In this document: piece after piece, positions 5,736-39,523 of the stretch
Numbering within the stretch: position 1 is the first letter of the stretch
How the letters are laid out: each line of letters starts with the position of its first letter
Source of the DNA: Myxococcota bacterium
Lineage (GTDB): Bacteria; Myxococcota_A; Bradymonadia; UBA7976; UBA1532
Direction: 5' to 3'
Length of the DNA stretch: 63,095 nt
NCBI GenBank assembly: GCA_963169045.1
Contig: CAUJDF010000076.1
Location: 1-63,095, forward strand
Made by a program: the position numbers and the translations under genes
Notes under the pieces: generated by a model
The model's database searches: none
The model's input: the letters and a program-made list of their open reading frames with translations, nothing else
Told to the model about the DNA's origin: nothing

Positions 5736-5747
5736 GTCCCCCTCCCT

Positions 5748-12416: not shown

Positions 12417-12860
12417 ATGAGGGCCGACGCGCTGGCGCGGTTGTTCGCGGTGCGGCTGGCGGCGGGCGCGCAGGCGCCGAACGGCGGCCCGGCGCCGCGC
12501 GTCGTGTGGAACGACGGCGGCGACGAGCTGCTGCTCCACCTCGACTCGCTGCGGACGCGGTTCAGCCGCGACGCGCTCTCGGTGGGCCTCGACGTCGAGA
12601 CGGACCAGACCGGGCGGCAGCCGGTGCAGGTGGTGTTCTCGCTCGCCGGGGACGCCGGCCAGGCGCTCGTCGCGGCGACCGAGGAGCTGCCGCGCGGCGA
12701 CGAACGCGTCGTGGCCCGCTGGGGCCGCGCGCTGCAGGACGCGCTGTGGGCGGTCCTCGTGGGCGCCGCGCAGCAGCAGGCGGCGGCCCAGCCGGGCGCG
12801 CGCCCCGTGATGGCGATCGAGCGCGGGCAGATCCGCCTGGCCCGGAGGTTCGACCGATGA
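12417..12860 (+). CDS. hypothetical protein, first gene of the giant-protein cassette
   Basis: Predicted 147-residue soluble protein with no signal peptide and no recognised domain. It alternates beta-like and amphipathic helical segments (VVWNDGGDELLLHLDSLRTR, GLDVETDQTGRQPVQVVFSL). Its end overlaps the start of the 3,231-residue gene by ATGA. GGAGGTGCTCG precedes the ATG. Position and coupling suggest a dedicated partner of the giant protein; nothing else can be said of its role. Confidence 0.8.
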   Translation: MRADALARLFAVRLAAGAQAPNGGPAPRVVWNDGGDELLLHLDSLRTRFSRDALSVGLDVETDQTGRQPVQVVFSLAGDAGQALVAATEELPRGDERVVARWGRALQDALWAVLVGAAQQQAAAQPGARPVMAIERGQIRLARRFDR

Positions 12861-15800
12861 GCCTGGATCTCGGCCTCCCCGACGAGGCGAAGCGGCTCGG
12901 ACAGGCCCTGGGCCTGCTCGACGAGGATGGCAACATCCGCCCCGAGTGGTTCGCGCACCCGGTCGGCGAGCTGCGCAACGTGCTGCGGAGCGAGACGCAG
13001 CGCGAGGCGCTGCTGGATCTGCTGGCGCTGGTGGCGCCGGTGGACGGGTCGGGCACGCCGCGGCGTCACCGCCTCCTGCCGGCCGGGCACCCCGGGCAGC
13101 TCCACCTCGTCGTCGAGCCCCTGGGGTCGGGCGTCCGCCTGGGCCTCGGCGCGGCGCTGACCGTCGAGGCGCCGGCCGCCATCCGGCTGCAGGCCACGGT
13201 CCCGCTCATCGACGCGGCCGACGCCGGTCTGACGGTGGTCGCCGCCACCGCCGGCGCGCCGCTGCGGCTCTCGATCGAGGCGGACCTGCCGGCGCTGCCG
13301 GCGCCGCTGCGCCTGCGGACGATCGGCGCCCACGCCGACCTCGTGCTGAACGGCCCGGTGAAGGTCGTCCCCCGCCTCGATCTGCTCGGGTTCGCGCTGG
13401 GCACGGCGGCGCCGCGCGATCTGCGCTTCGACCCGACGAACCTCGGGCCCGAGACGGTCGATCTGGTGCTCGGGCTGGTGCGGGACGCCCTGAACGCGCT
13501 GGGTGGGGCGCAGCTCGCGCACCTGGCGGGCGTGCTCGGCCTCGATCCGGGCATGCCGCGCTTCCCGCTGGAGCAGCTCGGCGACGCGCCGGGCGCGCTG
13601 CGCGGCTGGATCGAGTCGCTGCGCGCCCAGGACCGCTTCGGCGACTGGCTGCGGGCCGTCGCGCAGCTCGTCGGCTTCGCCCCGGGCGCCGTCTCGGGCA
13701 ACGGCACGGCGGCGCTGCCGTTCCGGTTGCAGCTCGTGGGCGACGCGAACCTCGCGCTCTCGCTGGCGGTGGTCCTCGAGGCGGGGCGGCTGCGCCCGGC
13801 CCTGTCGCTGCGCGCGGGGCCCGCCGCCGGCGCGCACCTCCTCGCCGAGGCGACCCTCCTCGACCTGCCGCTGTCCGGCGACGCGCCGGTGGTGCCCCTG
13901 CCCGCCGCCGAGGTCGTCGTGCGCGCGGGCGGGCCACCGTCCGTCCCGGCGATCACCGTGGGCGAGATCCGCGCCGGCGTGCGGCTCGCCGACGGGGCGC
14001 CCGCGCCGGTGCTCGAGCTGCGGAACGTGCGGTTCCAGGGCGCGACGCACCCCGTCCTCGATCTCACGCGGCTCGAGACCGCCGCCGACCTCGCCTCGAA
14101 CGTCGTGGAGCAGGCCCTGCGCGACGCGCTCGGCAGCAACGCGATGGCGACGCGGCTGCTGGTGGCCGTCGGCCTGGCCGATCCCGCGTCCGCCCCGGGG
14201 TGGCCGCACCAGCTCGACATCCTGCGCTTCGTGGGCGATCCGCTCGGCGAGCTGCGGCGCTTCTGGCGCGGCGTGGCCGACGACGCCGGCCACGCGATGC
14301 GGACGCTGCTCGCCGAGATGCTCGGCCGGCCGGGGACGGGCGCCGGGACGGGCACGCCCGCGGATCCGTGGCGCGTGGCGATCGCGACGACCGGGCCGCT
14401 CTCGTTGCAGGTGGCGGCGTGGCGGCCCGAGGGCGACGCCGACACCGTCCTCGTCGCCCTGCGCGTGGCCGTGGCGTCGGCGCCGTTCACGCTCGCCGCG
14501 GCGGCGACGCTCGTCTCGCTGCACCTGCCCGCGGCGGGCGCGCCCGGCGTCTCGCTCCCGCTCTCGATCGACGCGCGGCTCGACGTGGCGCCGCTGCTCC
14601 CCGCCGTCCCCGTCGGCGGCACCGGCCTCGAGGCCGCTTCGTTCGCGGCGCGCGTGGCGTGGACGCCCGGGCAGGCGCCCGCGTGGAACGCGACGCTGTC
14701 GGGCCTGCGCCTGACGGTGGCCGGCGAGGCGCTGCCGGCGGTGAACCTGAGCTTCCCGTCGTCGGTCGACTTCTCCAATCCGGCGGCGGCCGCGGCGGCG
14801 CTCGGCCTCGGCGCCGCGCAGCTCGAGGCGTTCGCCCGCGGGCTCGTGGCGCGCGCGGCGACGAAGTGGGGCGGCGTGCCGGGCGCGGCGCTCGCGGCGC
14901 TGCTCGGCCTGCAGCGCGTCTTCGACCTGCCCGCCGATCTGCCGGTGCTGACGGCGCCCGCCGGCCGCAGCCTGCTCACCGATCCCGGCGCGGCGCTGCG
15001 CCCGTGGCTCGCCTCGCTCGCGCGCACCGTCGACGCCGCCGGGCGGCCGGCGCTCGAGTCCGTGATCACGCTGCTGCAAGCGACGCTGCAGGGCGCGCTG
15101 CCGGCGATGCCGCACCACCCGCTGCCGGCGTTGCCGCTGGCCGGTCGCGGCACGCCCGCCGAGCCGTGGGCCGTCGCGGTCGGTCCGGCGAGCCTCCTGC
15201 TCTGGCTCGGACCGGACGGGCCGCCCTGGGCCGCCGCGCGCCTCGCCGGGGCCGACGCGTCGCCGCTCGCGTTCGCCGGCGCCGCGGTGTCGGCCGCCGC
15301 GTCGTGGCCGGCGCTCGCCGCGCGCGTCGAGCACAACCACCGCGATCGCCTCGCCGCCGGCCTCGAGGCGCTCACCGCGTTCCTGGCGGCGAGCGACGGC
15401 GTCGTGCCGCTGCTCTCCGCCTCGCCGCCCGCCCCGGACTTCACCGCCGGCGGCCCGTTCGCCGCGTCGCACGACCGCCTCCCGGCCCACCCCGACGCGA
15501 TCGCGGCGGTGCTCGCCCAGGTCGCGGCCTGGGGCCCGGACGCGCTCGTCGTCCTGCTCGGCACGGCGGCGACCGACTGGACGGCGCTGCTCGCCGCGCC
15601 CGCGCGTCCCGGCACGACGGCGCCCGGCGCGCACTTCGACTTCCGGCTCGCCGACACGCCGCCCGACCGCGTCGACCTCGACGTCGTGACCGACGTGGTG
15701 GACTGGTACCGCGCGACGCTCGTGGGCACGGACGCGGCCTCGCTCGAGGCGCAGGTGCGGCGGATCCTGAACCGGATCGCGGCGTTGCAGCCCGGGCGAC

Positions 15801-18800
15801 CGGTGGTGCTCGTCGCGCACTCGCTCGCCGGGCTCGGCGCGCGCCGGGCCGCGGCCGGGGTGCGCGGGGTCGTGACGCTCGGCACGCCGCACGTGGGCGC
15901 GCGGCCGCCGTTCGACGACGTCTCGGTGGCGGCGGCGATGTCGCTCTACCGGCTCGTCCGCGCGCAGGTGCCCGCGGGCGCGCTGCGCGACGCCCTCGAC
16001 TTCGCGGATCGCCTCGGCGAGCTGCTGCCGGCGGAGGTGCCGACCGAGCCGTCGCTCGCGACCGGCGGCGTGCCCGTGCTGGCGCTCGCCGGGCGGCTCG
16101 ACGGCGAGCCCGTCGCGGCCTTCGCCGCCGCGCTCGCCGCGCTGGCCCCCGGCGCGCCGGCCGGCGCCGCCCTCCCCACCGCGCCCGACCGCGTCGGCCT
16201 CGGCTTCGAGCTCACGGTCGCCGGCGGCTTCGGCGACGCGGTCCGGGCCGAGGCCTTCCTGCGCCTCGACCTCGCCGAGATCGGGCTGGACGGCGTCCTC
16301 GTCCCGACGCGGCGCCTCTCCGCGCGCCTCGAGCTGGACCGCCCCGGCGGCTGGCTCGTGGGCCAGCCGGGCCGACCCGGCCCGCGCCTGCGCAGCGCCA
16401 CCATCTCGCTCGATCTGAGCGGCGGCGACACGGCGCTCGACGTGCGGCTGAACGACGCCGCCCTCGACGGTCCTCCGCTTCCACGGACGCTCGCCGACGC
16501 GGTCACGCCGGCGCTGCTGGGCGAGGCGATCCGCGCGATCGCGCCCGACGCGGCGGCCCCGCTGCTCGACGCCCTGGCCGCCCTCGGCCTCGTGACGACC
16601 GGACCCGACGCCGTGCGCTCACTGGCGCTCGACGCCTTCGAGGCCCTGCGCCACGAGGGCCTGGCGTGGCTCGCGCCGCGCCTCGGCGACGCCCTGAACG
16701 GCGTCGCCAGCTTCGCGGGCCTGCGCGCCGCCACGCACCTCGACCTCGGCCCCGTGCGCGCCAGCGTCGACCTGCCGGGCCGCGCGCTGGTGCTGTCCAC
16801 GCTGCCCGACGGCCTGACCCTGTTCGAGCCGCTGCGCCTCGACGCCAGCGTGCGCATCGCCCTGCCCGACGTGACGCCGAGCGTCACGGCCACCCTGTCG
16901 CTCGGCGAATTCGGCGTGCGCTGGGCGTCGTCGCAGCTCGCGCTCACCGCGCCGAAGTGGATGGACGACCTCGTCCTCTTCCCGGCCCCGGCGGACCTGC
17001 CCGCCCAGCTCGGGTCGCGCCTCGGGCGCCTCGTCTTCTCGGCCGGCGCCGCCGAGGCGCTGTCGGGCCTGCTCCCGGCGGGCATGCGCCTGCCGCCGCT
17101 CGACGCCTTCTTCGGCGGCCGGCCGCGCTCCGGCCCGCCCGCCGCCGACGCGCCGCCGCTCCCCGCCGAGCCCATCGCCGAGCTGCTGCAGCTCTTCGAC
17201 CGGCTGCTGGGGCACGCGCCGGGCGACGGCCTCGCGCTCCCGGCCAACATCGAGATCACTGCGATCGAGGACGCCGGCGCGACGGTGATCCGGGCGCGCA
17301 CGACGGCGCCGTTCGGCGGCGTGCTCGACCTGCGCCTGGGGCTGCGCCTCTCGGCGGGCGGCCGCATCGACCCCGAGGTGCGGGTCGGCCTGGCGCTCCC
17401 GCTCGACGGCGCCTGGAGCCCGCTCGGCGTGGAGTTCGAGCTGCGCGCCGCCGGGCCGGCGTTGGCGCTGATCCTGCCGGGGCCGACGCGCGTCGAGCTG
17501 TTCCCGACGTTCGGCGGCCTGACCGCGCTGCTGAGCGGCGGCGCGGCCCTGCTGCCCGCAGCGCTCAACGCGCTGCTCGACGCGCTCCCGAACCCGCCCT
17601 CGGCCGTCGAGACCGCGGCGCTCGGCGTGGCGCAGGCGTTCGGCCTCTACGATCCCGTCAACCGCTTCGCGACCCACGCCCCGCAGTTCCAGGATCTGCT
17701 CGACGGCGGCCTCGACTTCGCCGATCCGGCGACCCGGACGCAGGTCGTCAACGCCATCGCCGCGCTGTTCGGGCCCGGGCTGATCCCGCTCACGGTCGTC
17801 CCCAGCGGCGCGAGCCTCACCTGGTCGACGCCGGTGTTCGGCCACCCGCTCACCGTGGCGTTCGACTGGGGCCAGCCGGTCCCCACGCTGTCGCTCGACG
17901 CGACGTTCGACTTCGGCGGGGCGGTGCGCGTCACCGCCGACTTCGAGGTGGGGCCGGGCGGCGTCGCCGCCAGCGCCGGCGTCGGCCTGCCGCAGCCGCT
18001 CGGCCTGCCATTGCACCCGCGCCTGCGCGCCGCCGTCGGCGCGACCGGCATCTCGCTGCAGCTCCGCCCGCTCGCGCCCGACGGCGTCGGCGACGGCCCG
18101 CTGCGCGTGGACCTGCTCCCGACGCCGGGCGTCACCGCCGACGCCGACCTCCCGCAGAAGCTCGCGCTGGACGTGCTGCTGCCGCTCGCGGCCGAGCTGC
18201 TCGACCGCGCGATCGGCACCACGGCCCTGTGGAGCGCCCCCGGGGCGCCCACGCTCGGCGAGCTCGTCCAGGCCACCGGGCTGTTCGACGCGAGCTGGCG
18301 CCTGGTGGATCCGCTCCCCAGCGTGCCGGACGTGGTCATCGGCCTCATCGAAGAGCTCGGCGTGTCGATCCCGCTGGGTCCGCTGACGCTGATCCTGGGC
18401 GACGTCGGCGCGGACCAGTTCGGCGTCGCGCTGAGCGGGACGCTGGACATCCCGCTCGGCGGCGACCTCGAGCTGCGCCTGATCTTCGGCCGGACCGCCG
18501 CCGGCAGCCCCGGCGCGGCGCGCGTCGCGGTGATCCTGTTCCAGGGCGGCGCGTTCGCGCCCACGCTCGACGCCCACGGCCTGGGCATCGGCCTCGGCGG
18601 CGCCACCGGCCCGCTCGTCCGCACCGACATCGTGCGCCTGGGCGGCGTCGACGCCTTCACGTTCTTCAGCGTCGATTTCCACCCCACGTTCAGCGCGGAC
18701 TTCGCCGGGGCGGGCCTGCTGCTCGACGACGTGTCGCTGCCCCTCGGCCAGCTCGGCGGCGGCGGCGGCAACCCGGTCGTCGGCTCGCTGCTCGGCGGCG

Positions 18801-21800
18801 GGCAGCCGAGCGGCGACCAGGCCCCGGCGCAGCCCGGCGTCGACGTCGTCGCGAGCTACTACCGCGGCACGTTCGACCTGAGCTTCGAGGGCGAGCAGGC
18901 GCTGTGGATCGGCGTGCGCGCCGCCTTCGGCCCGCTCTACATCGAGCAGGTCGGCCTGCGCTCCTTCCCCGGGACGAGCCCCACCACCGCGATCGACCTG
19001 CTCGTCGACGGCGGCGTCACCATCTCCGGCCTCAGCGTGCAGGTCGACGACCTCAGCCTGCGCCTGCCGCTCGCCACGCTCGCCGACCCGTCCACCTGGT
19101 CCGTCGACCTGCAGGGGCTCGCCATCGGCTTCAGCGCGCCCGGCCTCCAGATCGCCGGCGGCCTGCGCAAGTCCGAGACGCCGGAGGGCCTCGAGTACTC
19201 GGGCATGCTCCTCGTGAAGGTGCAGTCGTTCGGGCTCGTGGCGCTCGGGAGCTGGGGCACGTTCCACGACGAGCAGGGCGACTTCGACACGTTCTTCCTG
19301 TTCGCCGGCCTGTTCGCGGTCATCGGCCTCCCGCCGCTGCTCGAGATCCGCGGCCTCGGGCTGGGCTTCGGCTACAACCGCCGCCTCCTGATCCCCGAGG
19401 ACATCGAGGCGATCCCCGACTTCTTCCTCGTGGCGGCGCTCGACGACCCCGGCCGCCTGACCGCGTCGCCGCTCGACGTGCTGCGCGAGATGAAGGAGCA
19501 GGTGCCGGCGCGGCGCGGCAGCTTCTGGTTCGCGGTGGGCCTGCACGGCACGACGTTCTCGCTCGTGCACCTGACGGCGGTCGTCTACGTGGCGCTCGAC
19601 CGCGGCGTCGAGGTGGGCCTGCTCGGCGTGGCGCGCATGGCGCTGCCCTCCGACGACAGCGCGCTCGTCAGCATCGAGCTGGCGATCAAGGCGCGCTTCA
19701 GCAGCGAGGAGGGCCTGCTGTCGGTGCAGGGGCAGCTCACCGACAACTCCTGGCTCCTCAGCCGCGACTGCCAGCTCACCGGCGGCTTCGCCTTCTTCTC
19801 CTGGTTCAAGAAGGGGCAGTTCGTCCTCACCATCGGCGGCTACCACCCCAACTTCCAGCGGCCGCCGGAGTTCCCCGAGGTGCCGCGCGTCGGTTACCGC
19901 TGGCAGCTCTTCGACGCCCTCGTCATCAAGGGCGAGAGCTACTTCGCGCTGACCAACTCCTGCGTGATGGCCGGCGTGCGCTTCGAGGCGGTCTACGACG
20001 TCGGCTGGCTGAAGGCGTGGTTCATCGCCTGGGCCGACTTCCTGCTGTCGTGGGACCCCTTCCACTACGACATCTCGATCGGCGTCTCGCTGGGGGCGCG
20101 CTTCACGATCGAGATCGACCTGTGGGTCGGCACGATCCGCATCTCGTTCAGCGTCTCGATCGGCGGCTCGCTGCACGTGCTCGGCCCGCCGCTGCACGGC
20201 ACGGTCACCGCCGACCTCGGGCCGATCTCGATCACGGTGCCGTTCGGGCCGGACCCGGACGACGAGCCCGATCCGCTGGACTGGGCCGAATTCGCTGGGA
20301 AATACCTGCTGGGCGGCGAGGCGGAGGCGCGCGCGGTCTCGGCGCAGGCGGGCGGCGGGCTGCTGCCTGTCGAGCCGCCGGGATCGCGGCCGGCGCCCGG
20401 CACGCGCGACCAGCCCTGGCGCTTCGCCGCGGAGTGGGACCTGCGCACCGAGACGCGCATGCCGGCGACCTCGGTCGAGGCGTTCGGCATGCCGCTGTCC
20501 ATCCCGAGCTACGTCCTCGGCATCGCGCCGATGTACGCGCCCACCGTCGCGGCGCGGCACGTCGCGCGGCTGTTCCGGCGCGAGCCCGGCGGCGGCGAGA
20601 CGCCGCTGCGCCTGGGGCCCGAGCTGGACCCGGACCGCATCCAGATCGCGGAGCGCGAGGGGCAGTTCCCCGAGGCGGTGTGGCGCTACGCGGCGCACGA
20701 GCCGCCCGCCGCCGCGTCGCGCAACGTGGCCGGGCTCGCCGGCCTCGACGTGCACGGCGTCGCCGAGTCGATCAACCCGGTCGGGCCGATCGACATGACC
20801 AAGCTGAAGGATCCCGGGCCCCGCCGCCCGCTGCCCTTCGCGCGGCACCGCGGCCAGGACATCGGCGCGGTGCGCACGGACGGGCTGCGCGCGCGCGAGC
20901 TGGTGGCCGAGGTGCGGCCGTCGCTGGCCGTGGCCGAGGCGATCACCGGCGCCGAGTGGGACGACGTGCGCGTCGCGCTCGGCGTCCCGGGCGGCGGTGT
21001 CTCCGGCAAGAGCGTGCCCGCGCTGCGCGGCCGCGCGAGCCCGCCGGTCGTCGCGACGCTGTCCGAGGGCCTGACGATGGACCCGGTCACGTCGGCGCCG
21101 CGCGTCGAGGTCGCGCGGCCCGCGCCGGTCGTCGCGCTGGCGCTCGAGGCGCCGCGTCTGCTGATGGCGGCGCGCCTGCCGGCGGCCCCGACGACGGCCG
21201 CGCTGCCGGCGCTCGCGACGACGGTGAGCAACGCCCCCGAAGCGCCGCGGGTGCGTCCGCCTGGCCTGCCCGCGGGCGCGACGGCGCGCCTGATGCGCGT
21301 GCCAGCACCCGGCGCCGCGCGGCCCACCAAGGCGGCCACCGGCCTGCGCGTCGACCGCCACGCGGCGCTGGGCGTGGCCCTCTCGCCGAAGCGCCTGCGG
21401 TTCCGCGACGAGCAGACCGAGCGCTTGCTCGGCAACGGCCTGCTGCTCGCGCCGAACGTGGCGCAGGTCTGGTCGCTGCCGGTCCCCGATCGGCGCGACG
21501 AGCAGGCGGAGGCGCTCGCCGACCGCCGCCACCTCGACGAGCGGGCGGAGGCGCACGCCGGTCGCCGCCGCGTCGACGAGCGGGCGGAGGCGCACGTCGG
21601 TCGTCGCGCCCTCGACGAACGCGCGGAGGCGCACGCCGGTCGCCGCGTCGACGAGCGGGCGGAGGCGCTCGCCGGCCGCCGCCACCTCGACGAGCGGGCG
21701 GAGGCGCACGTCGGTCGCCGCGCCCTCGACGACGCCCTGCGCGAGCGTGTCGAGCGCGAGGGGATCGACGGCGCCGCGCCGTCCGACCACGTGCTCCGTG

Positions 21801-24318: not shown

Positions 24319-25352
24319 TCCGCCCCTGGCTGCCCGCCCGCGACGCGCTCGCCGAGCGCCTCCGGCAGAGCGCGCAGGTCGAGACGCAGGCCCCCGAGGT
24401 CGAGCTGCCGCCCTACCTCGAGTCGTTCCTCGCGCACCTGCGGCTGCTGGTCGGCGTGCCCTTCCAGTACCTCGTGCCCGACGCCCGCCTGCTGCCCGAC
24501 GAGTCGATCCGCTTCTTCTACCTCGACCGCTCCTGGAGCGACCGGCTCGTCGACGGGGCCATCGCCGTGGGCAAGACGGGCTCGCGCGAGCTCGCGCACT
24601 ACCAGGCCCACGCATCGTCGGTGCACGGCACGCTCGATCGCACCGAGCGCGCCGTCCGCCCCCTGCAACGCCGCGTCGTCACCGACTTCGGCCAGGCCAA
24701 GATGAGCCGGTCGCAGGCCGACGCGAACATCGCGACCGGGTTCCTGCTGCGCTCGGCGCTCGTGTCCGGCTGGCCGCACATCGACGTGCGCGCCTACCGC
24801 GAGCCCGTCCCGGGCAAAGCCGATCCGGCGCTGGTCGTCGACAAGCAGCTCGAGACGCTGCGGCTCGAGCGCCTGTCGCCCTCGGTGATGATCGGGCTGT
24901 GGGAGGGCGTGCCGGCGCAGGTGGTCTTCGACGAGCCGTCCCACGGCGTGCAGTTCGGCGTGCGCCGGGGCGGCGGCCAGGGCGGGGACACGCCGCAGAT
25001 CTACCTGCGCAAGAACGACGGCTGGCCGGTCGAGACGGGCGGATCGACGGAGACCCCGGTGGACGTGCCGATGCGGCCGGGCGGCAAGGGCGTGGTCGAC
25101 GTCGCCGCGCTGCGGCGGGCCATCGAGCAACGTCGCCAGGCCCTGCCCGAGGCCGACCGCGACGCGACGCCGCCGCAGCGGGGCGGCGGCAGCTTCGCGC
25201 TCGAGGTGCTGCTGCCCCCGTGGCGCCAGCGCTTCGAGGGCACGGTGGACGAGGCGCAGGAGGCGACACAGGCCGGCGATCAGGTCGCCGTGCGGCCGTG
25301 GCTCGTCGACGGGGTGCTGCGGGCCCGCGTGGCGCGGCTGGAGGACCTCTGA
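24315..25352 (+). CDS. conserved uncharacterised protein of the giant-protein cassette (345 aa)
   Basis: Predicted 345-residue soluble protein, no signal peptide. It contains YLESFLAHLRLLVGVPFQYLV, IRFFYLDRSWSDRLVDGA, ATGFLLRSALVSGWPHIDV (about 139-157) and RLERLSPSVMIGLWEGVPAQ (about 180-199), which read as strongly structured alpha/beta motifs. I do not recognise a named family. The ATGA overlap upstream and the 1-nt TGATG overlap downstream place it as a coupled member of the cassette. Its moderate size and the lack of low-complexity sequence make it the easiest member to identify by structure prediction. Confidence 0.85.
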   Translation: MIRPWLPARDALAERLRQSAQVETQAPEVELPPYLESFLAHLRLLVGVPFQYLVPDARLLPDESIRFFYLDRSWSDRLVDGAIAVGKTGSRELAHYQAHASSVHGTLDRTERAVRPLQRRVVTDFGQAKMSRSQADANIATGFLLRSALVSGWPHIDVRAYREPVPGKADPALVVDKQLETLRLERLSPSVMIGLWEGVPAQVVFDEPSHGVQFGVRRGGGQGGDTPQIYLRKNDGWPVETGGSTETPVDVPMRPGGKGVVDVAALRRAIEQRRQALPEADRDATPPQRGGGSFALEVLLPPWRQRFEGTVDEAQEATQAGDQVAVRPWLVDGVLRARVARLEDL

Positions 25353-28300
25353 TGGCCGACTTCGGCTTGAACATCGCCCACCGCATCACCGAGAACGTCG
25401 CGCGCACGTGGAACCCCGCGCTGCCCCGCGACCTGCGCGTGCTCGTGCCAGTGCACGTCGACGCGCTCGTCGTCCGCGAGGCCGGCGGCGACTGGGCCGA
25501 CTGCCGCCTGCGCGACCCCTCGCCCGACGCGCCCGAGGCGGACAGCGCGCAACGCCTGCCGCCGCCCTTCGCGAACCTCGACGGCGGCCGCGCCCCCGGC
25601 GTGTACCTGCACTGGGCGCTGCCCGATGCGCTCGCCCGCGTCGGCGGCGCGACGACGCCCGAGGTGCCCTCGGCGCCCGACCGCTGGCTCGTCCTGCGCC
25701 TCGCGCCGAGCGCCGACGACCCCTCGCGCCGCCAGGTCCGCGGCTGGGTCCTGCGTGGCGGCGGCGCCGGCTTCGCGCCCACCCCGCTCGAGGCGTGGGT
25801 CGAGCCCGGGGCCGACGGCGGCCGCCTCACCGCGCTCGGCAGCGGCGACCCGGCGTGGGCCGCCTACTACGACAACGCCGCGAATCGATTGGCTTTCTAC
25901 GACGACCTCGACGGCGTGCCCCGCGGGCCGGTGGGGTACGTGGTCTGCGGCTGGTACGCCGATCCCGCGGCCGACCCGCTGCACCCGGCGAGCACGCGAC
26001 GCGAGCTGGCGGCGATCCTCGACCGGCTCGCCTGGTCCGTCGCGGGCTACGACCTCGGCAAGGCCGACGAGAAGTCCCGCGACCGGCACGACGCCGTCGC
26101 CGGCCAGGCGCTGCCGATCCGCGAGACCGTGCTCTCCGAGACCCTCCGCACGGTCATGGAGGAGCGCCCCGACTACCTCGAGGCCGGCCGGCTCGAGCGC
26201 CTCCGGGACCCGATCCCCAACCAGTGCCTCTTCCACGGCAGCGCGGTCGACCTGGCGTGGCCGCGCCCCGACGACGGGGAGCGCGAGGTGGGCGGCCCGC
26301 CGCCGGCCGCCGACATCCGCGTCGTCTTCGGCACCAGCGGCCCGGACGCGTTCGGCGCGCTCGTGGCCGCCGAGACCGGCATCCCCGAGCAGGCGCGCCT
26401 CGTCGCAGCGCTCGCCCTCGGCGGCCTCCACGAGCTCGAGGAGCCCGACGGCCGCGCCCGCGTCGACGACCGCCTCCACGCCGCCGGCTTCGCCGCGCTC
26501 GACCTCGACCCGCCGACCACCGAGCGCATCTGGCAATCGCCGGCGCAGGGCTACCAGGTGCCGAAGGCGCCCACCGTCTCGAAGCCGCCTCGCCCGGGCG
26601 TCCGCGTGGGCCCCACCGGCGTCAAGACCGCGGAGATCAAGGCGAAGTTCGCCGTCACGCCCGCCCCGAAGGTCGTCGCCGGCGACCGCTTCCAGATGAA
26701 GCCGCCGGTGGCCGCCCGGCCCGCGCCCGAGGCCGGCCGCTACGTCGACGTACAGCGTGCCGCGCCGCGCTTCTTCACCCCCGCCGACCCGGTGCTGCTG
26801 GTGCAGGGAGGCGAGCGCGCCTTCAAGCACAACGGCGACCACCGCCTCGACGGCGAGGGCAAGCTGCGCTGCCGCGTCACGGGCACGACCGTCGACGAGA
26901 TCGCCACCTACCTCGAGGACGGCGCGCGCTACGGCGTGCGCGGCGAGGACCTGCTGGTCGGCAACGTCGCGAGCGGCGCCGTCCCGCCGGAGTGCCAGGA
27001 GATGCTCGAGGAGCTGGCGGTCCTCGACCCCGGCTCGGCGCTGCCGATCGCCGTGCGGGCGCGCCTCTCGGCCCGCGCCGAGAACCCGCGCGCCTTCCCC
27101 ATGAACCGCATCGCCGCGCTCGACGCGCGCGTCGCGCCGGGCATCGCGCGGGCCCGGGTCGACGCGCAGGCGGCGATCGCCACGGTGCGGGCGGAGCAGA
27201 CGGCGTGGTGGGCCACGTGGCACCCCGCAGTCGATCCCGGCCCGCTGCTCGCGCACAGCGGCCTCCGCGGCACGCTGCCGTCGCCGATCGCCGTCCGGCC
27301 GCCGCACCGCCCGTGGGTGCCGCTGCACGCCGACTGGGAGCTCGAGTACCTGCCCTCGCCGGGCCGCGCCCGCGACTGGACGTCGGGCGAGGTCGACTTC
27401 GAGCCCGCGAACCGCGACGCCGGCAAGCCGCGCACGATCGCCGGGCGGGCGCTGCTCTCCGGCGGCCTGGCGACGTCGGTCGCGCTCACCCTGCAGCGGG
27501 TGACCGAGCAGGCGGCGCGCGCCGGCGGCACCGAGCCCGCGCCGGTCCGCACGCCGACGTCGTTCCCGTCCGAGGCCGCGCGGCGCGCGCTGCGCTTCCT
27601 GGCCGAGAGCGCGGGCGAGCGCGTCGACGAGCAGGCGCTCGGCGACCTGTCCGAGGCGCTGGCGAGCATGGACGTGCTCGCCGGCGCGCTCGAGCACTTC
27701 CACCACAAGCTGCGCGGCGAGGCGCCGCTGCCCCCGGCCGCCGCCGTGGCCCCGCCCGAAGGCTTCACCGGCCTGCGCGCCGGCTTCGTCCGCCTCAACC
27801 GGCTGCGGCTCGTCGACGCCTTCGGCCAGTACGTCGACCTCGTCACGCCCGACGCGCTCCTGTCGCCCGTCGTCTTCTCCGAATCGATGGCGCTCCCCGA
27901 CGAGGCGCGCGTCGCCGCCTGCCCGCCCCGGCTGACGGGCGCGGCGCGCATGCACTTCCGCTTCCTGCAGGCCGGCGGGCGCGCGGACGCCGACGCCGGA
28001 AGCGGGCCGGTCTGCGGCTGGCTGCTGCCCGACCACCTCGACCGCGCCTGCGAGGTGTTCGACGCCGCGGGCGAGGCGCTGGGCCAGGCGCGCCGCGACC
28101 TCGAGGCCGGCGTCCTGTGGGAGAACGCGCCCGGCCGTCCGAGCACCGTCGGCGGGCGGCCGCGGGACGCCATCCCCCACCCCGACGTCGCCGCGATGAT
28201 GCAGGCCATCGTCGACCGCGGCCCCGGCGACCTGGCCGCCGACCGCGAGACCGCGCTCGACGCCCTGCTCCGCGTCATCGACAGCACGCTGTGGTCGGTC

Positions 28301-29053
28301 GATCCCTTCGGACACATCGGCGAGGAGCACCTCGCGCTGCTCATCGGCCATCCCATCGCCGTCGTCCGCGCCGAGCTCCGCCTCGAGCTGCGCGAGCCCG
28401 TGCAGGACGCCACGCTCGACGTCACGCGCATCCCCGTGCGGCTGGGATCGCTGTCCCACTGGCAGGACGGCCTGATGGGCTACTTCGTCGACGGCGACTG
28501 GCACTCGCTGCGCCCGACGCACGCCGCCGCCGCGCGCCTCGCCCGCCCCGCGCCCGCCCAGGGCTTCCTGGGGCCCGTCGGGGACGTGCCCGCCTACGCC
28601 GCCGACTTCGCGGCCGACGTGGACGCGCCGGCCTCGTCCGTGGCCAACCCGTACGTCCACGAGGACGGTCTGTTGTGGGTCGTCCCCAACGTCACCCACC
28701 GCCTCACGCTGCTGCTCGAGCCGCACTGCGTCGTCCATGCCACCGCCGGTCTGTTGCCGCGCAAGGAGATCGGCCTGCGCCGCGAGTGGATCGCGCCGCC
28801 GCTGCGGAAGATCGCGCCGACGTTCCGCTTCGGCCCCGTCCTGCGGGATCCGCAGCAGATCCGCATGCCGGTCGCCGCCGACCTGGGCGGCGGCTGGACG
28901 TGGACCCATCGCGCCGACGTGGACCAGTGGCTCGAAGAGGACGTGGTGCACGCGACGCACGAGGCCCTGCTGCCGCCGGACCCGGCCGTGGCGCAGGAGG
29001 GCTGGCTCAAGATGAAGCCCGAGGCTCCGCCCGAGGAGGAAGGCAATGGGTAG
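25352..29053 (+). CDS. conserved uncharacterised large protein of the cassette (1,233 aa)
   Basis: Predicted 1,233-residue soluble protein, no signal peptide. Motif-like patches include PGVYLHWALPDALARVGG near residue 80, APDRWLVLRLAPS near 108, VGYVVCGWYADP near 190, and FGHIGEEHLALLIGHPIAVV near 985. A long central section (about 400-480) is Lys/Pro-rich. I cannot assign a catalytic class. It starts 1 nt inside the previous stop and ends overlapping the next gene; its last codons contain the GAGGAGGAAGG that serves as ribosome binding site for that gene. Confidence 0.85.
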   Translation: MADFGLNIAHRITENVARTWNPALPRDLRVLVPVHVDALVVREAGGDWADCRLRDPSPDAPEADSAQRLPPPFANLDGGRAPGVYLHWALPDALARVGGATTPEVPSAPDRWLVLRLAPSADDPSRRQVRGWVLRGGGAGFAPTPLEAWVEPGADGGRLTALGSGDPAWAAYYDNAANRLAFYDDLDGVPRGPVGYVVCGWYADPAADPLHPASTRRELAAILDRLAWSVAGYDLGKADEKSRDRHDAVAGQALPIRETVLSETLRTVMEERPDYLEAGRLERLRDPIPNQCLFHGSAVDLAWPRPDDGEREVGGPPPAADIRVVFGTSGPDAFGALVAAETGIPEQARLVAALALGGLHELEEPDGRARVDDRLHAAGFAALDLDPPTTERIWQSPAQGYQVPKAPTVSKPPRPGVRVGPTGVKTAEIKAKFAVTPAPKVVAGDRFQMKPPVAARPAPEAGRYVDVQRAAPRFFTPADPVLLVQGGERAFKHNGDHRLDGEGKLRCRVTGTTVDEIATYLEDGARYGVRGEDLLVGNVASGAVPPECQEMLEELAVLDPGSALPIAVRARLSARAENPRAFPMNRIAALDARVAPGIARARVDAQAAIATVRAEQTAWWATWHPAVDPGPLLAHSGLRGTLPSPIAVRPPHRPWVPLHADWELEYLPSPGRARDWTSGEVDFEPANRDAGKPRTIAGRALLSGGLATSVALTLQRVTEQAARAGGTEPAPVRTPTSFPSEAARRALRFLAESAGERVDEQALGDLSEALASMDVLAGALEHFHHKLRGEAPLPPAAAVAPPEGFTGLRAGFVRLNRLRLVDAFGQYVDLVTPDALLSPVVFSESMALPDEARVAACPPRLTGAARMHFRFLQAGGRADADAGSGPVCGWLLPDHLDRACEVFDAAGEALGQARRDLEAGVLWENAPGRPSTVGGRPRDAIPHPDVAAMMQAIVDRGPGDLAADRETALDALLRVIDSTLWSVDPFGHIGEEHLALLIGHPIAVVRAELRLELREPVQDATLDVTRIPVRLGSLSHWQDGLMGYFVDGDWHSLRPTHAAAARLARPAPAQGFLGPVGDVPAYAADFAADVDAPASSVANPYVHEDGLLWVVPNVTHRLTLLLEPHCVVHATAGLLPRKEIGLRREWIAPPLRKIAPTFRFGPVLRDPQQIRMPVAADLGGGWTWTHRADVDQWLEEDVVHATHEALLPPDPAVAQEGWLKMKPEAPPEEEGNG

Positions 29054-32000
29054 GCGCGCCCGACGTTCGCATGGCATCGCGCAGGCGCCGCCGGCGTGGT
29101 CCCACCGGCAGGAGCGCGACGCGGCGATGGCCATCCGCGCCGACCTGCGCAACCAGGGCATCGCCGACCTGTGGACGCTGGCGCTCGAGACCCGCTACGA
29201 GTGGATCCCTTGCGGCCCGGCGGGCATCAGCCAGCCGCCCGGCGGCGAGCACTGGCAGGGCGCCGATCCCACCGCCGGCCTGGTGATGGACATCAGCGTC
29301 GACAGCGCCGGCAACGACCTGCACATCGCCACCACCGACGGCGGCGTCTGGCACTCCGCCGACGGCGGCGTGAACTGGACGCCGCTGACCGACCGCCGCC
29401 GCGCGCTGGGCGTGGGCGCGGTCGCCCGGTCCACCGGCGGGGCGAACCCGGTCCTCTTCAGCGGCACCGGGGACCCGCACGACGAGGGCGCCTTTCGCGC
29501 CCACGGCGGCGGCCTCGAGCGCTCCATCGACGGCGGCAGGACCTGGCACCGCATCGGCGGCCGCGGCGCCGCCAACCTCGCGCTGCGCGACGTCAACGCC
29601 ATCGTCGCCTTCGACGAGAACCGTCTGCTCGTCGCCACCGACGCCGGTCTGTTCTACTCCGCGGACGGCGGCATCAACTTCGGCGCGGCGCCCGCCTACG
29701 ACGACGGCACCCCGGTCGCCCCCGGCCTGGTCAATTGGCTCAAGGCCAGCGGCACCGAGTTCTGGTTCTCGGTGGCGACCGATGGCATCTACAAGGGACA
29801 GGTGCCGCCCACCGCCGCGAACATCCAGATCGTGCACCGCCCGGCGTCCGTCGTGCCCGCCACGGCGGCGACGCCCATCGGCAACATCGTCTTCGATCGC
29901 ATCCTGAACGCGGGGACGGAGCGGTTCCTGGCCTCGACGGCCCGGCAGAACCCGAGCGGGACGCAGTACCACAGCATGCAGGTGGGCTTCGGCGGCACTT
30001 GGCGTCGCCTGCCCCACACCGCGCTGGACCGCAACCAGACGGCGTACAACCACTGCGTGGCGCTGGATCCGGCGGACCCGCGCGTGGCCTACGTCGGCAT
30101 GGTCAGCATGTACGCGGCCACCAACTTGAACACCACGCCCAACCCGCCGACGTGGACGCCCGCGAACGTCAGCAACAGCAAGCTGCACGCCGACCAGCAC
30201 CGCCTGCTCGCCGACGCCAATCGCGGCGGCCCGCGGACGCGCATGTACGCCGGCAACGACGGCGGCGTGTACCGCACCGACAACGCGGGCGGCGCGTGGT
30301 CCGGGCTCAACCGGCGGCTCGAGACGAACCTGCTCTATGGCATCGCGCTGGCGCGCAACGCCGCCGGCAACCTCGAGATGGTCGCCGGCATGCAGGACAC
30401 CGGCACTGCCGACGGCTCGACGGCGGTCGCCGATCCCAGCGTCTCGAGCGACTGGACGTGGGCCTATGCCAGCGGCGGCGACGGCGGCGCGGTGCTCATC
30501 GACCCCGCCGACCCCGACAACGCCTGGGGCTGGGCCAACGAGACGCTCATGCGCCGCCGGCTCGTCGGCGGCAGCCGCCGCTGGACGTCGACCGGCTTCA
30601 GCGTCACCGGGGATGCCTTCGCGAGCCTGCTCGCCCTGGGGCGCAACGCCGCCGGCAACTGGCGGGATCTGTACGTCGCCGCGTTCGTGCGCCTGCCGGG
30701 CAACACATGGCGCGGGCGCCTGTACAAGAGCACCAACGGCGGCGCGTCTGCCCCGGCGCTGAAGAAGACCTTCCCCCTCCGCATCACGGCGATGACCGTC
30801 GCGCCGACCGACGCTTCGCAGGAGACGAACGCCTCGCCGCCCGCCTGGAAGGACGTGTGGCTCGGCTTCATCGACGGCACGGTGCAGGTCAACCGCAACG
30901 GCGGCACCGGCGCCTTCACGACGTTCTCGCCCGGCGGCGCGGGCCCGGTGCTCGGCATCGCCGTGGATCCGACGAACTCGCAGCGCGTGGCCGTCGTGTA
31001 CGCGGGCTACACCGGGCTGCCCGGCGTGAACCGCACGCAGCACGTCTACCTCACCGACGACGGCGGGACGAACTGGCGCGACATCGGGGGGCAGGACGGG
31101 AGCGGCCCGGCCGGCAACGTGCCCGACCTGCCGTGCCTCGCGGTGATGTTCGTGCGCTCCAACCCCGGCCTGCTGCTCGTCGGCCTCGAGGGCGGCGTGG
31201 TCGCCACCGAGGGCCCCAACTACGGTCAGGTGTGGCGGCGCGTCGCGCTCGGCCTGCCCAACGTCGCCGTCACCAGCCTCGCCCAGGTGGCGAACGCCCC
31301 GGGGAGCGCCGCGCCCGCGCTCGGCGCCGCGCTCCCGCCCATCGTCGCCGGCACTTACGGCCGCAGCGTGTTCCGCCTGCGCCGCACGACGGGCCGCCGC
31401 CTCGTGATCCACGGCGAGCTCGGCTTCGAGCCGACCACCGCCGGCGCGCCCGCCGAGCGGCGCCGCCTCGTCCTCGCCAACCCCGGCGACGCCGAGCTCA
31501 GCCTCACCACCATCGGCAGCCCGGGCGGTGTGTTCCGGGTGGTGAGCCCGCCGGCGGTCCCGCGGGCCATCCCCGCCGGCGGCAGCCTGCCTCTCGAGGT
31601 CGAGGTCGACCCGACCGGCGACGGCCGGCACACGGCGGTGCTCGTCCTCGAGTCGAACGACCCCGCGAACCCGCGCATCGAGGTGCCGATGAGCGCCGAC
31701 GTGCGCCTCGACGCCGTGCCCCACCTCGCCCTGTCGCACCGCGCGCTCAACTTCGGCCCGGGCCCCGGCGGCGCGCGCACGCTGCCCGTCGTGCTGCGCA
31801 ACCTCGGGCGGCCGCCCCTGAACGTCACCGCCATCGACCGCACCGGCGACGCCTCGTTCTCGATGGTCGCCGCCGACGGCACGACGGCGCTGACGTTCCC
31901 GATCGTGCTCGGCCCCCGCGAGACGCGGACGGTGCGCGTGCGCTTCGACCCGGGTGAGAACGGGGAGCGTCAGGCCCGCTTCACGGTGCGCAGCAACGAC

Positions 32001-32153
32001 CCGACGTCGACGGCGACGCCGGCGGTCATCCGCGTCGCGGGGGAGCGCGTCAGCGCCGGCCTGAGCGCAGGCGAGATCGCGCTCATCGTGGCCGGCGTGG
32101 CGGTGGTCGTCGGCGCCGTCGTCACGGTCGCCGTCGTCGCCTCCCAGGACTGA
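29046..32153 (+). CDS. BNR-repeat beta-propeller protein with Hydin-like domains and C-terminal membrane helix
   Basis: Predicted 1,035-residue protein closing the cassette. BNR/sialidase-type blades (WHSADGGVNWTPL near 101, ERSIDGGRTWHRI near 157, YRTDNAGGAW near 408, YLTDDGGTNWRDI near 667) indicate a propeller like those of glycan-binding or VPS10/photosystem-assembly-type proteins. Two ASPM/SPD-2/Hydin-like Ig modules follow (about 785-1000, VESNDP-type edges). The last 30 residues are a single hydrophobic helix (ALIVAGVAVVVGAVVTVAVV). There is no signal peptide, so this is a tail-anchored layout. The ATG at 29046, 6 nt behind GAGGAGGAAGG and overlapping the previous stop, is preferred to a later ATG at 29127. 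Confidence 0.85.
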   Translation: MGRRARRSHGIAQAPPAWSHRQERDAAMAIRADLRNQGIADLWTLALETRYEWIPCGPAGISQPPGGEHWQGADPTAGLVMDISVDSAGNDLHIATTDGGVWHSADGGVNWTPLTDRRRALGVGAVARSTGGANPVLFSGTGDPHDEGAFRAHGGGLERSIDGGRTWHRIGGRGAANLALRDVNAIVAFDENRLLVATDAGLFYSADGGINFGAAPAYDDGTPVAPGLVNWLKASGTEFWFSVATDGIYKGQVPPTAANIQIVHRPASVVPATAATPIGNIVFDRILNAGTERFLASTARQNPSGTQYHSMQVGFGGTWRRLPHTALDRNQTAYNHCVALDPADPRVAYVGMVSMYAATNLNTTPNPPTWTPANVSNSKLHADQHRLLADANRGGPRTRMYAGNDGGVYRTDNAGGAWSGLNRRLETNLLYGIALARNAAGNLEMVAGMQDTGTADGSTAVADPSVSSDWTWAYASGGDGGAVLIDPADPDNAWGWANETLMRRRLVGGSRRWTSTGFSVTGDAFASLLALGRNAAGNWRDLYVAAFVRLPGNTWRGRLYKSTNGGASAPALKKTFPLRITAMTVAPTDASQETNASPPAWKDVWLGFIDGTVQVNRNGGTGAFTTFSPGGAGPVLGIAVDPTNSQRVAVVYAGYTGLPGVNRTQHVYLTDDGGTNWRDIGGQDGSGPAGNVPDLPCLAVMFVRSNPGLLLVGLEGGVVATEGPNYGQVWRRVALGLPNVAVTSLAQVANAPGSAAPALGAALPPIVAGTYGRSVFRLRRTTGRRLVIHGELGFEPTTAGAPAERRRLVLANPGDAELSLTTIGSPGGVFRVVSPPAVPRAIPAGGSLPLEVEVDPTGDGRHTAVLVLESNDPANPRIEVPMSADVRLDAVPHLALSHRALNFGPGPGGARTLPVVLRNLGRPPLNVTAIDRTGDASFSMVAADGTTALTFPIVLGPRETRTVRVRFDPGENGERQARFTVRSNDPTSTATPAVIRVAGERVSAGLSAGEIALIVAGVAVVVGAVVTVAVVASQD

Positions 32154-32213: not shown

Positions 32214-32939
32214 ATGGCGAGACAGAGCGCGTTCATCTTCGTGATGCTGGCCGTCGCCGCCGTCGGCTGCGAGACGAGCGGCGAGGACGGAGGCACGAAC
32301 GGGAGCGACGCCGCGGTGGCGGGCGGCGACGCGTCCGTCGGCGGCGGGCTCGGCTGTGCCTGCACGACGAACGCCGACTGCACCGCCGGCTTCTGTAGCG
32401 ATCTGCGGGTCTGCACGACGTCCGACGCGGTGGAGTGCCAGTCGGACGCCGATTGCGACTGCGGCGCGCGATGTGTCGTCTTCGGCGACAACCGGAGCTG
32501 TCAGATTCCGTGCGCGGCGACCAGCGACTGCCCGGGCGCGCTCGAGTGCCAGCCCCTCGACCCGCCGTGGACGACGACCGCCGGCGCCGAGCTGGTCGGC
32601 GGATGCGTCGCGCCCACGGGCGGGGGCGGCGGAGGCGGTGGCGGCGAGGGCGTCACCTGGGACGGTGACATCCAGCCGATCGTCCAGCAGGCGTGCCAGG
32701 GCTGCCACCTCGGCGGCGGCACCTCGGGCGGCGTGCGCTTCGACACCTACGCCGACACGCAGGTCGTGGTCGACAACTGCCCGCCGGGCACCTCCAGCCG
32801 CGTCGCCGATCTGATGGCGCTCAAGGTGTCACCGGACCCGCCCTGCGGCGCCCGCATGCCGCTCGTGGGCGGGCCGCTCTCCGACGCGCAGGTGCAGCTC
32901 TTCGCCGCCTGGGTGGCGGCGGGCGCGCCGGAGAACTGA
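32214..32939 (+). CDS. Cys-rich lipoprotein with haem-binding-like CxxCH motif
   Basis: Predicted 241-residue lipoprotein. The leader ends in a lipobox (AVGC, Cys about 20). It is followed by Cys-rich modules of the type CTTNADCTAGFCSDLRVC, which are frequent in Myxococcota surface proteins, and a polyglycine linker. The C-terminal domain (WDGDIQPIVQQACQGCHLGG, then FDTYAD and GGPLSDAQVQLFAAWVAAGA) has the architecture of a Planctomycete-type cytochrome c domain. CQGCH is the one covalent haem site; a distal Met is present in RMPLVGG. It lies 60 nt after the cassette and may or may not belong to it. Confidence 0.8.
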   Translation: MARQSAFIFVMLAVAAVGCETSGEDGGTNGSDAAVAGGDASVGGGLGCACTTNADCTAGFCSDLRVCTTSDAVECQSDADCDCGARCVVFGDNRSCQIPCAATSDCPGALECQPLDPPWTTTAGAELVGGCVAPTGGGGGGGGGEGVTWDGDIQPIVQQACQGCHLGGGTSGGVRFDTYADTQVVVDNCPPGTSSRVADLMALKVSPDPPCGARMPLVGGPLSDAQVQLFAAWVAAGAPEN

Positions 32940-38259: not shown

Positions 38260-38311
38260 CGTTCCCGAGCCTCGGGAACGCCACTTCGCGGCATCGGAAC
38301 GCGGCCCGCGG

Positions 38312-39229: not shown

Positions 39230-39523
39230 GCGACCTCCCGCGGGCACCATACACCGGATTTTCCCCGCCCCGCCCTCCCCGCGTAGAGTCCTGGTTCATG
39301 CGAACGACGCCACATCCAGCCCAGATCAGAATCGTAACGTGCTCGTTCGACACTCCACATGCGCCACACACGCCAATGATGGCACGTCTCGTCCACAATC
39401 AACGAGACGGTGAAGGCACGCGGTCGCCGCGGCTTCGCCCACGGGAGCGTTTCCGTGAGACGTGACCCGACGAAACGTTTCGTGACACCATCGCGGTTCC
39501 GCAAGTGGGGGCAGGGACCGCCC
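39230..39523. promoter_or_regulatory. AT-richer divergent region upstream of recD with palindromes
   Basis: 294 nt with visibly lower GC than its surroundings. It holds a hairpin with 8-bp arms CGTCTCGT/ACGAGACG at 39385-39409 and a perfect 14-bp palindrome ACGAAACGTTTCGT at 39470-39483, 40 nt before the chosen recD start. These look like operator or promoter elements for recD and/or the divergent amidohydrolase. No known box such as LexA is claimed. Confidence 0.45.

What the first reader, a model, noticed from the sequence alone, without database searches (positions are those of the whole stretch)
12417..32153. Six-gene, 19.7-kb cassette built around a 3,231-residue protein; candidate undescribed system
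All five gene junctions overlap by 1 to 8 nt, so the genes are very likely translated as a unit. None of the large products has a signal peptide. One has a DUF6603-like stretch and an embedded hydrolase-like segment, two are large proteins of unnamed families, one is a compact alpha/beta protein, and the last is a beta-propeller with Ig-like modules and a C-terminal membrane helix. About 20 kb of coding for uncharacterised proteins is a heavy investment, and the tail-anchored propeller suggests the complex is tethered to a membrane. Seen: coding, overlaps, motifs. Recalled: similar patches in unnamed proteins elsewhere. Inferred: one functional complex.
Basis: partly seen in the sequence, partly recalled or inferred. 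Interest (0 to 1): 0.85.

Follow-up and report, generated by a model that had tools for sequence, protein, structure and literature searches.

The report
Undescribed giant-protein gene cassette
A set of very large, unstudied proteins is encoded side by side here, and the same core set recurs in the same order in many distant bacteria (a related set even in salt-loving archaea), so it is very probably one biological machine whose function is still unknown.

Summary
In detail: six tightly packed same-strand genes at 12417-32153, each with a GGAG/GGAGG ribosome site, five overlapping junctions. The "one system" inference is strongly supported for four of the six genes. A scan of GTDB genome contigs with the 1,233-aa family alone gave 41 loci, by their names from about nine phyla; in 34 of 41 the order is DUF6603 -> (589+345 family) -> 1,233 family on one strand, and four of the seven exceptions are contig ends. 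The 589- and 345-residue proteins are two halves of one ~700-aa protein, fused in most relatives. A second version (DUF6603, a homologue of the 589 protein, an unrelated giant) occurs in bacteria and on haloarchaeal plasmids. The 147-aa gene and the propeller gene are not conserved; their positions hold changing genes: hydrolases upstream in some loci, fibre-, collar- or propeller-like proteins downstream. The DUF6603 model resembles ApoB and outer-membrane beta-meanders; the 1,233-family model matched no solved or viral structure. No paper in the searched library names DUF6603. Most likely function (inferred, 0.35): a modular complex that carries a hydrolase and engages lipid or cell surfaces. 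Function is unproven.

The parts
12417..12860 (+). P0001, 147 aa, no relatives found; stands where some relatives have a hydrolase gene; function unknown
   Evidence: no family; 1 of 57 genomes: itself; GGAGG site
12857..22552 (+). P0002, 3,231 aa giant: long aliphatic, aromatic-poor N-terminal part with an embedded alpha/beta-hydrolase-like segment, DUF6603 domain, C-terminal tail
15437..16186 (+). alpha/beta-hydrolase-like segment of P0002 (residues about 861-1110; AHSLAG with Ser989, then TLGTPH)
   Evidence: PGAP1 E 0.15, below cut-off; Abhydrolase_1 E 9.3e-10 in the relative L034; alignment; GHSTAG in L034
18917..20323 (+). DUF6603 domain (P0002 2021-2489); predicted antiparallel beta-meander resembling ApoB and outer-membrane proteins
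   Evidence: model of a short relative
21496..21732 (+). 39-bp tandem repeat, 6.2 copies, coding for a charged DERAEAHAGRR-type linker in P0002
   Evidence: sequence
22549..24318 (+). P0003, 589 aa = N-terminal half (A) of the ~700-aa AB family
24315..25352 (+). P0004, 345 aa = C-terminal half (B) of the AB family, fused to A in most relatives
25352..29053 (+). P0005, 1,233 aa, C family: in the model of a relative an N-terminal Ig/FnIII-like domain, a helical hairpin and further beta domains; no confident fold match
29046..32153 (+). P0006, 1,035 aa: weak BNR/Vps10-type propeller matches, two ASH/choice-of-anchor-D Ig domains, C-terminal hydrophobic tail; not conserved in relatives (alternative start 29127)

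Best explanation
A modular protein complex whose core is made in the cytoplasm. SHOWN: the DUF6603 protein, the AB protein (here split into P0003 and P0004) and the C protein (P0005) form an inherited unit; genes on either side vary; in part of the loci the gene abutting upstream encodes a hydrolase-like protein without signal peptide (EEP, subtilase, metallo-beta-lactamase-like; PhoD-like in the second version), and here a hydrolase-like segment sits inside the giant protein; downstream genes often encode beta-rich fibre-, collar- or propeller-like proteins. INFERRED: the DUF6603 beta-sheet engages lipid or membrane, AB and C are the scaffold, the variable downstream protein decides what surface is bound, and the hydrolase is the payload. 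The assembled particle would act on another cell's envelope after non-classical release or lysis, or, in this locus, from the producer's own membrane through the tail of P0006. It would work like a tail-less toxin complex with exchangeable payload and exchangeable adhesin.
For: Order and strand conserved in 34 of 41 loci retrieved by C alone; fusion/fission of A and B; distance matrices r 0.97-0.99 against at most 0.57 in 1000 permutations, 23 loci (species ancestry contributes). Of 46 DUF6603 genes followed by AB, 15 (14 distinct, L036 and L083 being one contig) have an abutting same-strand upstream gene; 10 of these 14 are hydrolase-like: 7 EEP (L052 and L049/L006 above Pfam's cut-off, L089 and L077 below it, L053, L057, L082 by BLAST cluster), 1 with two subtilases (L035), 2 MBL-like (L012 just above cut-off; L036 by motif reading only, no Pfam match). 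Second version: PhoD-like above cut-off in L038, L041, BLAST homologues in L102, L105. Abhydrolase inside the giant of L034. Downstream: D family in 24 of 41, Kelch propeller (L080) and a collar-like match below cut-off (L054). DUF6603 model: ApoB100 E 5.8e-5, usher and SprA chains below 1e-3, porin-type barrels Z 12-15. Crude signal-peptide test: 0 of 62 AB, 0 of 35 D, 1 of 56 DUF6603, 3 of 52 C flagged, the C flags being a VPVEVAALAV-type strand. Two of three haloarchaeal loci examined have a C' protein annotated as 'BGTF surface domain-containing'. Patchy spread: 13 of 377 genomes, plasmids.
Against: No secretion, lysis, injection or immunity gene was recognised in the cassette; release is unexplained. 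In 21 of the 36 loci with an upstream gene in view none abuts upstream, 19 of these 21 being actinomycetes, so a payload gene is not obligatory, and in the window the abutting gene P0001 is unassigned. The tail-fibre reading of D is weak: each named tail PHROG matched 1 of 43 fourth-position proteins, an unnamed one 2, and T4 short tail fibre matched one D at E 0.34. Porin-like matches have rmsd 12-15 A, so neither a closed barrel nor a pore is established. Eleven of 56 DUF6603 proteins, P0002 among them, have a 19-residue stretch above the TM threshold, which could be a membrane helix instead of strands. Some neighbours do look exported: the fifth gene of L069 has a signal peptide and the Kelch gene of L041 a lipoprotein-like start (read by eye, not flagged). 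No experiment.
Confidence: 0.35

Rival explanations
1. Intracellular lipid- or membrane-bound carrier: the DUF6603 sheet wraps lipid as ApoB does, AB and C cap or dock it, the associated hydrolases act on lipids or phosphoesters, and the fibre/propeller proteins are docking modules.
For: Best fold match is ApoB100; core proteins lack signal peptides; alpha/beta-hydrolase, PhoD and EEP folds can act on lipids or phosphoesters (folds; activity is general knowledge); DUF6603 proteins reach 3,444 aa.
Against: Subtilases and collar-like partners fit poorly; strand alternation is only moderate (10 of 24 strands with p<0.1); patchy, often plasmid-borne distribution is unusual for lipid housekeeping.
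Confidence: 0.25
2. Anti-phage or abortive-infection defence system: large sensor scaffold with an attached, exchangeable hydrolase effector.
For: Patchy, plasmid-borne, exchangeable enzymes; nuclease- or protease-type folds among the enzymes.
Against: No PADLOC match in P0001-P0006; 126 neighbours within two genes of the core show scattered defence matches (mad2 in 4 of 126, the other listed families in 1 each), so no defence-island pattern; no NTPase or nucleotide sensor found in the core.
Confidence: 0.12
3. Degenerate or repurposed phage-tail structure (tailocin- or eCIS-derived).
For: Collar-like match in L054; C of L014/L049 extended by a tail with a collar-like motif (read by eye; no Pfam match); baseplate-V genes about 9 kb upstream in one Paenibacillus plasmid.
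Against: No viral relative of C or AB found by three pattern scans of IMG/VR nor of C or the DUF6603 region in 50,697 phage records; the C model matches no viral structure below E 0.09; no sheath or tube protein among the 17 window proteins scanned.
Confidence: 0.1
4. Unrelated genes that merely lie together in a high-GC genome.
For: P0001 and P0006 are not conserved partners.
Against: 34 of 41 loci keep the core order; 7 of 7 co-occurrence in the phylum sample.
Confidence: 0.03

Closest known systems
DUF6603 proteins (Pfam PF20248)
   Same: P0002 contains the domain far above cut-off
   Different: Pfam calls it a family of unknown function; the conserved AB and C partners match no Pfam family (for A') and no paper in the library names the domain
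Apolipoprotein B
   Same: Best Foldseek match of the DUF6603 model, E 5.8e-5
   Different: TM-scores 0.13-0.15 of the query and rmsd above 20 A; no lipid-transfer family in the Pfam scan of P0002; no signal peptide found
Outer-membrane beta-barrels (porins, ushers, SprA)
   Same: Long antiparallel up-and-down strands; VIA Z up to 15.0
   Different: rmsd 12-15 A; core proteins lack signal peptides by a crude test; present in Gram-positive bacteria and haloarchaea, which have no outer-membrane barrel route (general knowledge)
Tc toxin complexes and extracellular contractile injection systems
   Same: Proposed logic only: multi-protein particle with exchangeable payload and adhesin (inference)
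   Different: No Tc, sheath or tube family among P0001-P0006

Membership tests
DUF6603 (PF20248) | Profile score above gathering cut-off (27 bits) | tested here: met
   437.6 bits
ApoB / large lipid transfer proteins | Recognisable family sequence | tested here: not met
   Pfam scan of P0002 at E up to 1 shows only DUF6603 and a weak PGAP1 match
ApoB / large lipid transfer proteins | Amphipathic beta-sheet wrapping lipid | tested here: inconclusive
   fold match to ApoB100, moderate alternation; lipid binding not testable here
Outer-membrane beta-barrel proteins | Signal peptide for export | tested here: not met
   crude hydropathy test: 1 of 56 DUF6603 proteins flagged, P0002 not
Outer-membrane beta-barrel proteins | Closed transmembrane barrel | tested here: inconclusive
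   Z 12-15 but rmsd 12-15 A
Contractile injection systems (eCIS, tailocin, T6SS) | Sheath and tube genes in the cluster | tested here: not met
   none among the 17 window proteins scanned; for 126 neighbours of relatives only the commonest 25 of 134 Pfam families are listed, none of them sheath or tube
Tc toxin complex | TcA pore protein or TcB/TcC families | tested here: not met
   no Pfam or NCBIfam match in P0001-P0006 at E up to 1
Known anti-phage defence systems | Match to a PADLOC profile | tested here: not met
   0 matches for P0001-P0006 at E up to 1
alpha/beta hydrolases (segment of P0002) | Profile match above cut-off and intact nucleophile elbow | tested here: inconclusive
   window segment below cut-off; relative L034 above cut-off; serine kept but elbow is AHSLAG against GHSTAG

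The most novel reading that the evidence does not exclude
A previously undescribed class of giant-protein machine, in two versions and spread over many bacterial phyla and haloarchaea, in which an ApoB-like amphipathic beta-sheet protein with a two-part scaffold ferries an exchangeable hydrolase to a target surface chosen by an exchangeable fibre or propeller, without phage-tail parts and without signal peptides on its core.
Probability: 0.25. Interest if true: 0.92.

Novelty: categorically new. Interest (0 to 1): 0.74.

Why it matters
Three large protein families, about 9 to 20 kb of coding per copy, are kept together in bacteria named from about nine phyla, and a sister version reaches haloarchaeal plasmids; none has a known function, and no paper in the searched library names the hallmark domain. 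A cassette kept that strictly while its flanking enzyme and binding genes are exchanged is the signature of a real machine. The result turns a row of 'hypothetical proteins' into a defined, testable system with cultivable hosts (Paenibacillus, Streptomyces, Kitasatospora). 'Categorically new' is a statement about the system matching no described kind here; its mechanism could still prove to be a variant of something known.

Tried and rejected
Sequence comparison with PDB: no match below E 0.65 for AB, C, P0006 or P0002; the DUF6603 profile touched Gas6 at E 0.02, not used. Upstream enzymes against PDB: nothing for L089 EEP or L102 PhoD-like, ComEC at E 0.0028 for L012. Viral relatives: none found; the IMG/VR scans rest on short peptide patterns and did not include DUF6603. 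Defence-island idea: not supported. Promoters and terminators: none by consensus scan, uninformative at this GC. Self-repeats in P0002: no window pair below E 0.01. C' is not alignable to C (hhalign probability 0.3). P0006 against 16 listed fourth-position and neighbour proteins and the whole set of called proteins: no match. Only a DUF6603 and a C relative from Paenibacillus maysiensis were folded (both jobs used); AB was not folded; C beyond residue 520 was barely tested by VIA.

Rows dropped: one search left out called proteins with internal stops; L006 and L014 (same contig as L049) were left out of the neighbour tables; L087 (second copy of L086) was left out; L045; of 127 neighbours chosen, 126 were given (L083's partial MBL gene left out as copy of L036's); of 35 D proteins 34 went into A7 (the one of broken L084 left out) with 9 other fourth-position proteins; the matrix test used the 23 loci present in all three alignments A3-A5, without the window.
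Full report
Observation. The window (contig C76 of a 9.0-Mb, 109-contig genome; GC 0.71-0.81 in 2-kb steps) carries six consecutive + strand genes at 12417-32153. In such DNA long ORFs arise by chance on every strand, so I tested coding directly: frame-wise GC peaks in the third positions of the claimed frames, and a codon-usage caller trained on the two largest ORFs returns the same genes. The junctions overlap by 4, 4, 4, 1 and 8 nt, and each start has a GGAG or GGAGG site. The next gene, 32214, has none, and its product is a Cys-rich, signal-like protein with a weak cytochrome match. One soft point: the caller prefers 29127 as start of the last gene, the ribosome site favours 29046. The phylum is Myxococcota: G125:C81, which the tool calls same phylum, has the length of contig JAGPCY010000020.1, a Kofleriaceae MAG.

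Families. Pfam finds DUF6603 in the giant (E 7.6e-131), Ig domains in the last protein, and nothing above cut-off in P0001, P0003, P0004 or P0005; NCBIfam adds choice-of-anchor D and a below-cut-off propeller match for P0006; PHROGs and PADLOC give nothing.

The core is one unit. tblastn with P0005 gave eight plasmid records of Streptomyces, Embleya and Paenibacillus; in two annotated ones DUF6603, a ~700-aa and a ~1,100-aa hypothetical stand in a row, while Paenibacillus sonchi shows AB and C without an annotated DUF6603. Six-frame comparison showed that the ~700-aa protein is P0003 and P0004 in one chain. I then scanned the GTDB genome contigs with an alignment of the P0005 family only (A2, eight rows), so that partners were not selected for. 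The scan used one degenerate peptide, so its 41 loci are a lower bound. Record titles name Paenibacillus, Streptomyces, Kitasatospora, Embleya, Nocardia, Frankia, Mycolicibacterium, Actinokineospora, Nostoc, Hydrogenophaga, Bradyrhizobium, Magnetospirillum, Rhodospirillales, Desulfosarcina, Pyrinomonadaceae, Saprospirales, Verrucomicrobia, Kofleriaceae and others; several are MAGs, and 'about nine phyla' is my reading of those names. With profiles of each family AB lies directly upstream of C on the same strand in 36 of 41 and DUF6603 -> AB -> C holds in 34 of 41. The seven exceptions: L059, L061, L070, L074 are cut by contig ends; L085 has all three, rearranged; L086 and L087 are the two chromosome-end copies of one decayed fragment in S. 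lavendulae. AB is in two ORFs in 8 of 41 (L084 among them is a broken copy; L061 shows only a B-type ORF) and in the window, L035, L039, L042 and L043. Distance matrices of the three families over 23 loci correlate at 0.97-0.99, against at most 0.57 in 1000 permutations each; species ancestry contributes to this. In the phylum sample DUF6603 is above cut-off in 13 of 377 genomes and C is present in 7 of 377; all seven are among the 13. In G111 the two lie on different short contigs, and in G129 C lies upstream of the enzyme genes. The same count for AB failed twice.

A second version. DUF6603 loci of the phylum without C carry another giant pair, A' and C' (L034, L037, L038, L040, L041, L047). 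A' is a homologue of P0003 (hhalign probability 97.4, E 1.3e-11, 182 columns) while C' is not alignable to C. Of the 18 DUF6603 matches over cut-off, seven have AB and seven have A' (L045 included) beside them; of the other four, two are on contigs of at most 5.6 kb, one is a second DUF6603 copy upstream of another, and one (L046) has neither but has homologues of two other genes of that version. A DUF6603 search of plasmids hit 19 records; I opened seven of those without C (Halobellus, Salinigranum, Halalkalicoccus, three Streptomyces, one Nocardia), and in all seven A' and C' homologues follow DUF6603 on the same strand, in Halobellus each split into pieces. In two of the three haloarchaea the C' protein is annotated as BGTF surface domain-containing. 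So the DUF6603-plus-A core spans bacteria and archaea.

What varies. P0001 has no relative in the other 56 class genomes, and P0006's listed matches there are, but for one, to its Ig domains. Across 46 DUF6603 genes followed by AB, 10 have no upstream gene in view, 21 have none abutting (19 of them actinomycetes) and 15 have an abutting same-strand gene; L036 and L083 are one contig, leaving 14. Ten of the 14 are hydrolase-like: seven EEP (L052 and L049/L006 above Pfam's cut-off, L089 and L077 below it, L053, L057, L082 by BLAST cluster), one subtilase of a pair (L035), two metallo-beta-lactamase-like (L012 just above cut-off; L036 by motif reading only, no Pfam match). Four are unassigned, the window's P0001 among them. 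In the second version PhoD-like proteins stand there (L038, L041; BLAST homologues in L102 and L105). In the window a hydrolase-like segment lies inside the giant: below cut-off on its own, but the relative L034, alignable from 13 to 2410 of the giant, has Abhydrolase_1 at E 9.3e-10 there and the serine region aligns, AHSLAG against GHSTAG. None of seven other long DUF6603 N-termini scanned has such a match. Downstream of C a family with Ig-like N-terminus and fibre-like repeats (D) stands in 24 of 41 loci, L086 and L087 counted separately; other loci have a collar-like domain below cut-off (L054), a Kelch propeller (L080), a weak Vps10-like match (L079, E 0.023), or no known domain (L089, L085). 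P0006 has no sequence similarity to any of them. Each named tail PHROG matched 1 of 43 such proteins, so 'tail fibre' is a shape analogy.

Folds. A 27-row alignment folded on a short Paenibacillus DUF6603 protein gave pLDDT 74.7 and pTM 0.57, the domain (about 200-626) being mostly above 80: long antiparallel strands. Foldseek lists eight PDB chains below 1e-3: ApoB100 three times, PapC/FimD ushers three times, SprA twice. VIA gives Z 12-15 for porins, TonB-dependent receptors, Tom40 and VDAC, but with rmsd of about 12-15 A, so I claim an up-and-down meander, not a closed barrel; side alternation reaches p<0.1 in 10 of 24 strands. The C model (pLDDT 76.7, pTM 0.76) has no PDB match below E 0.65 and none in BFVD below 0.09; its N-terminal part is Ig/FnIII-like (Z 6.5, which may mean only a common arrangement).

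Interpretation. Shown: a conserved three-family core without recognisable export signals, exchangeable neighbours, patchy distribution, presence on plasmids, no relatives found in the viral collections searched, no defence-island pattern. Inferred: lipid or surface engagement by DUF6603, scaffold roles of AB and C, payload role of the hydrolases, targeting role of the downstream proteins. I favour a released or membrane-held hydrolase-carrying complex (0.35) over an intracellular lipid carrier (0.25), a defence system (0.12) and a phage-tail derivative (0.1).

Literature. Full-text searches for DUF6603 and PF20248 return no paper; three broader searches were uninformative, and one listed eCIS and conflict-system papers of which I saw only the listing with the starts of abstracts. 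I read no paper. Most subscription papers and all bioRxiv preprints are outside that library.

Noticed in passing
window 7925-10828 (+): 967-aa protein with seven RTX calcium-binding repeat stretches, next to the DUF2254 gene that precedes the cassette.
   Followed up: no
window 4419-7565 (-): DUF1501 and DUF1800 genes side by side, next to a Ser/Thr kinase with a PEGA domain at 2540-4384.
   Followed up: no
window 34657-41431 (+): UvrD-type helicase with PD-(D/E)XK nuclease and a RecD-type helicase: a probable RecBCD/AddAB-like repair cluster downstream of the cassette.
   Followed up: no
window 32214-32939 (+): 241-aa Cys-rich lipoprotein-like protein with a CxxCH motif and a weak cytochrome match, 60 nt after the cassette, without a ribosome site like those of the cassette.
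   Followed up: partly
window 21496-21732: 39-bp tandem repeat, 6.2 copies, coding for a highly charged DERAEAHAGRR linker inside the giant protein.
   Followed up: partly
L101 9356-10594 and L106 7711-10458: Haloarchaeal genes upstream of DUF6603 encode proteins with glycine-rich hydrophobic helices that recall pore-forming effectors (recalled resemblance, untested; sequences).
   Followed up: no
L014 1252-7425 (= L049 10001-16174): In the window's nearest relative the C protein is 2,057 aa, extended by about 800 aa with a collar-like motif read by eye, as if a downstream gene had been fused (no Pfam match).
   Followed up: partly
L084, L086, L087: Broken copies: the Embleya scabrispora C gene lies in pieces, and S. 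lavendulae keeps a C fragment plus D at both chromosome ends.
   Followed up: partly
L009 1-4055: Paenibacillus polymyxa plasmid has baseplate-V and DUF4280 genes about 9 kb upstream of its DUF6603 cassette.
   Followed up: no
L067 13699-14652, L070 2367-3209: In Hydrogenophaga and a Comamonadaceae MAG the gene after C is a ferritin-like FA-desaturase/AurF-type protein, which fits neither slot reading.
   Followed up: no
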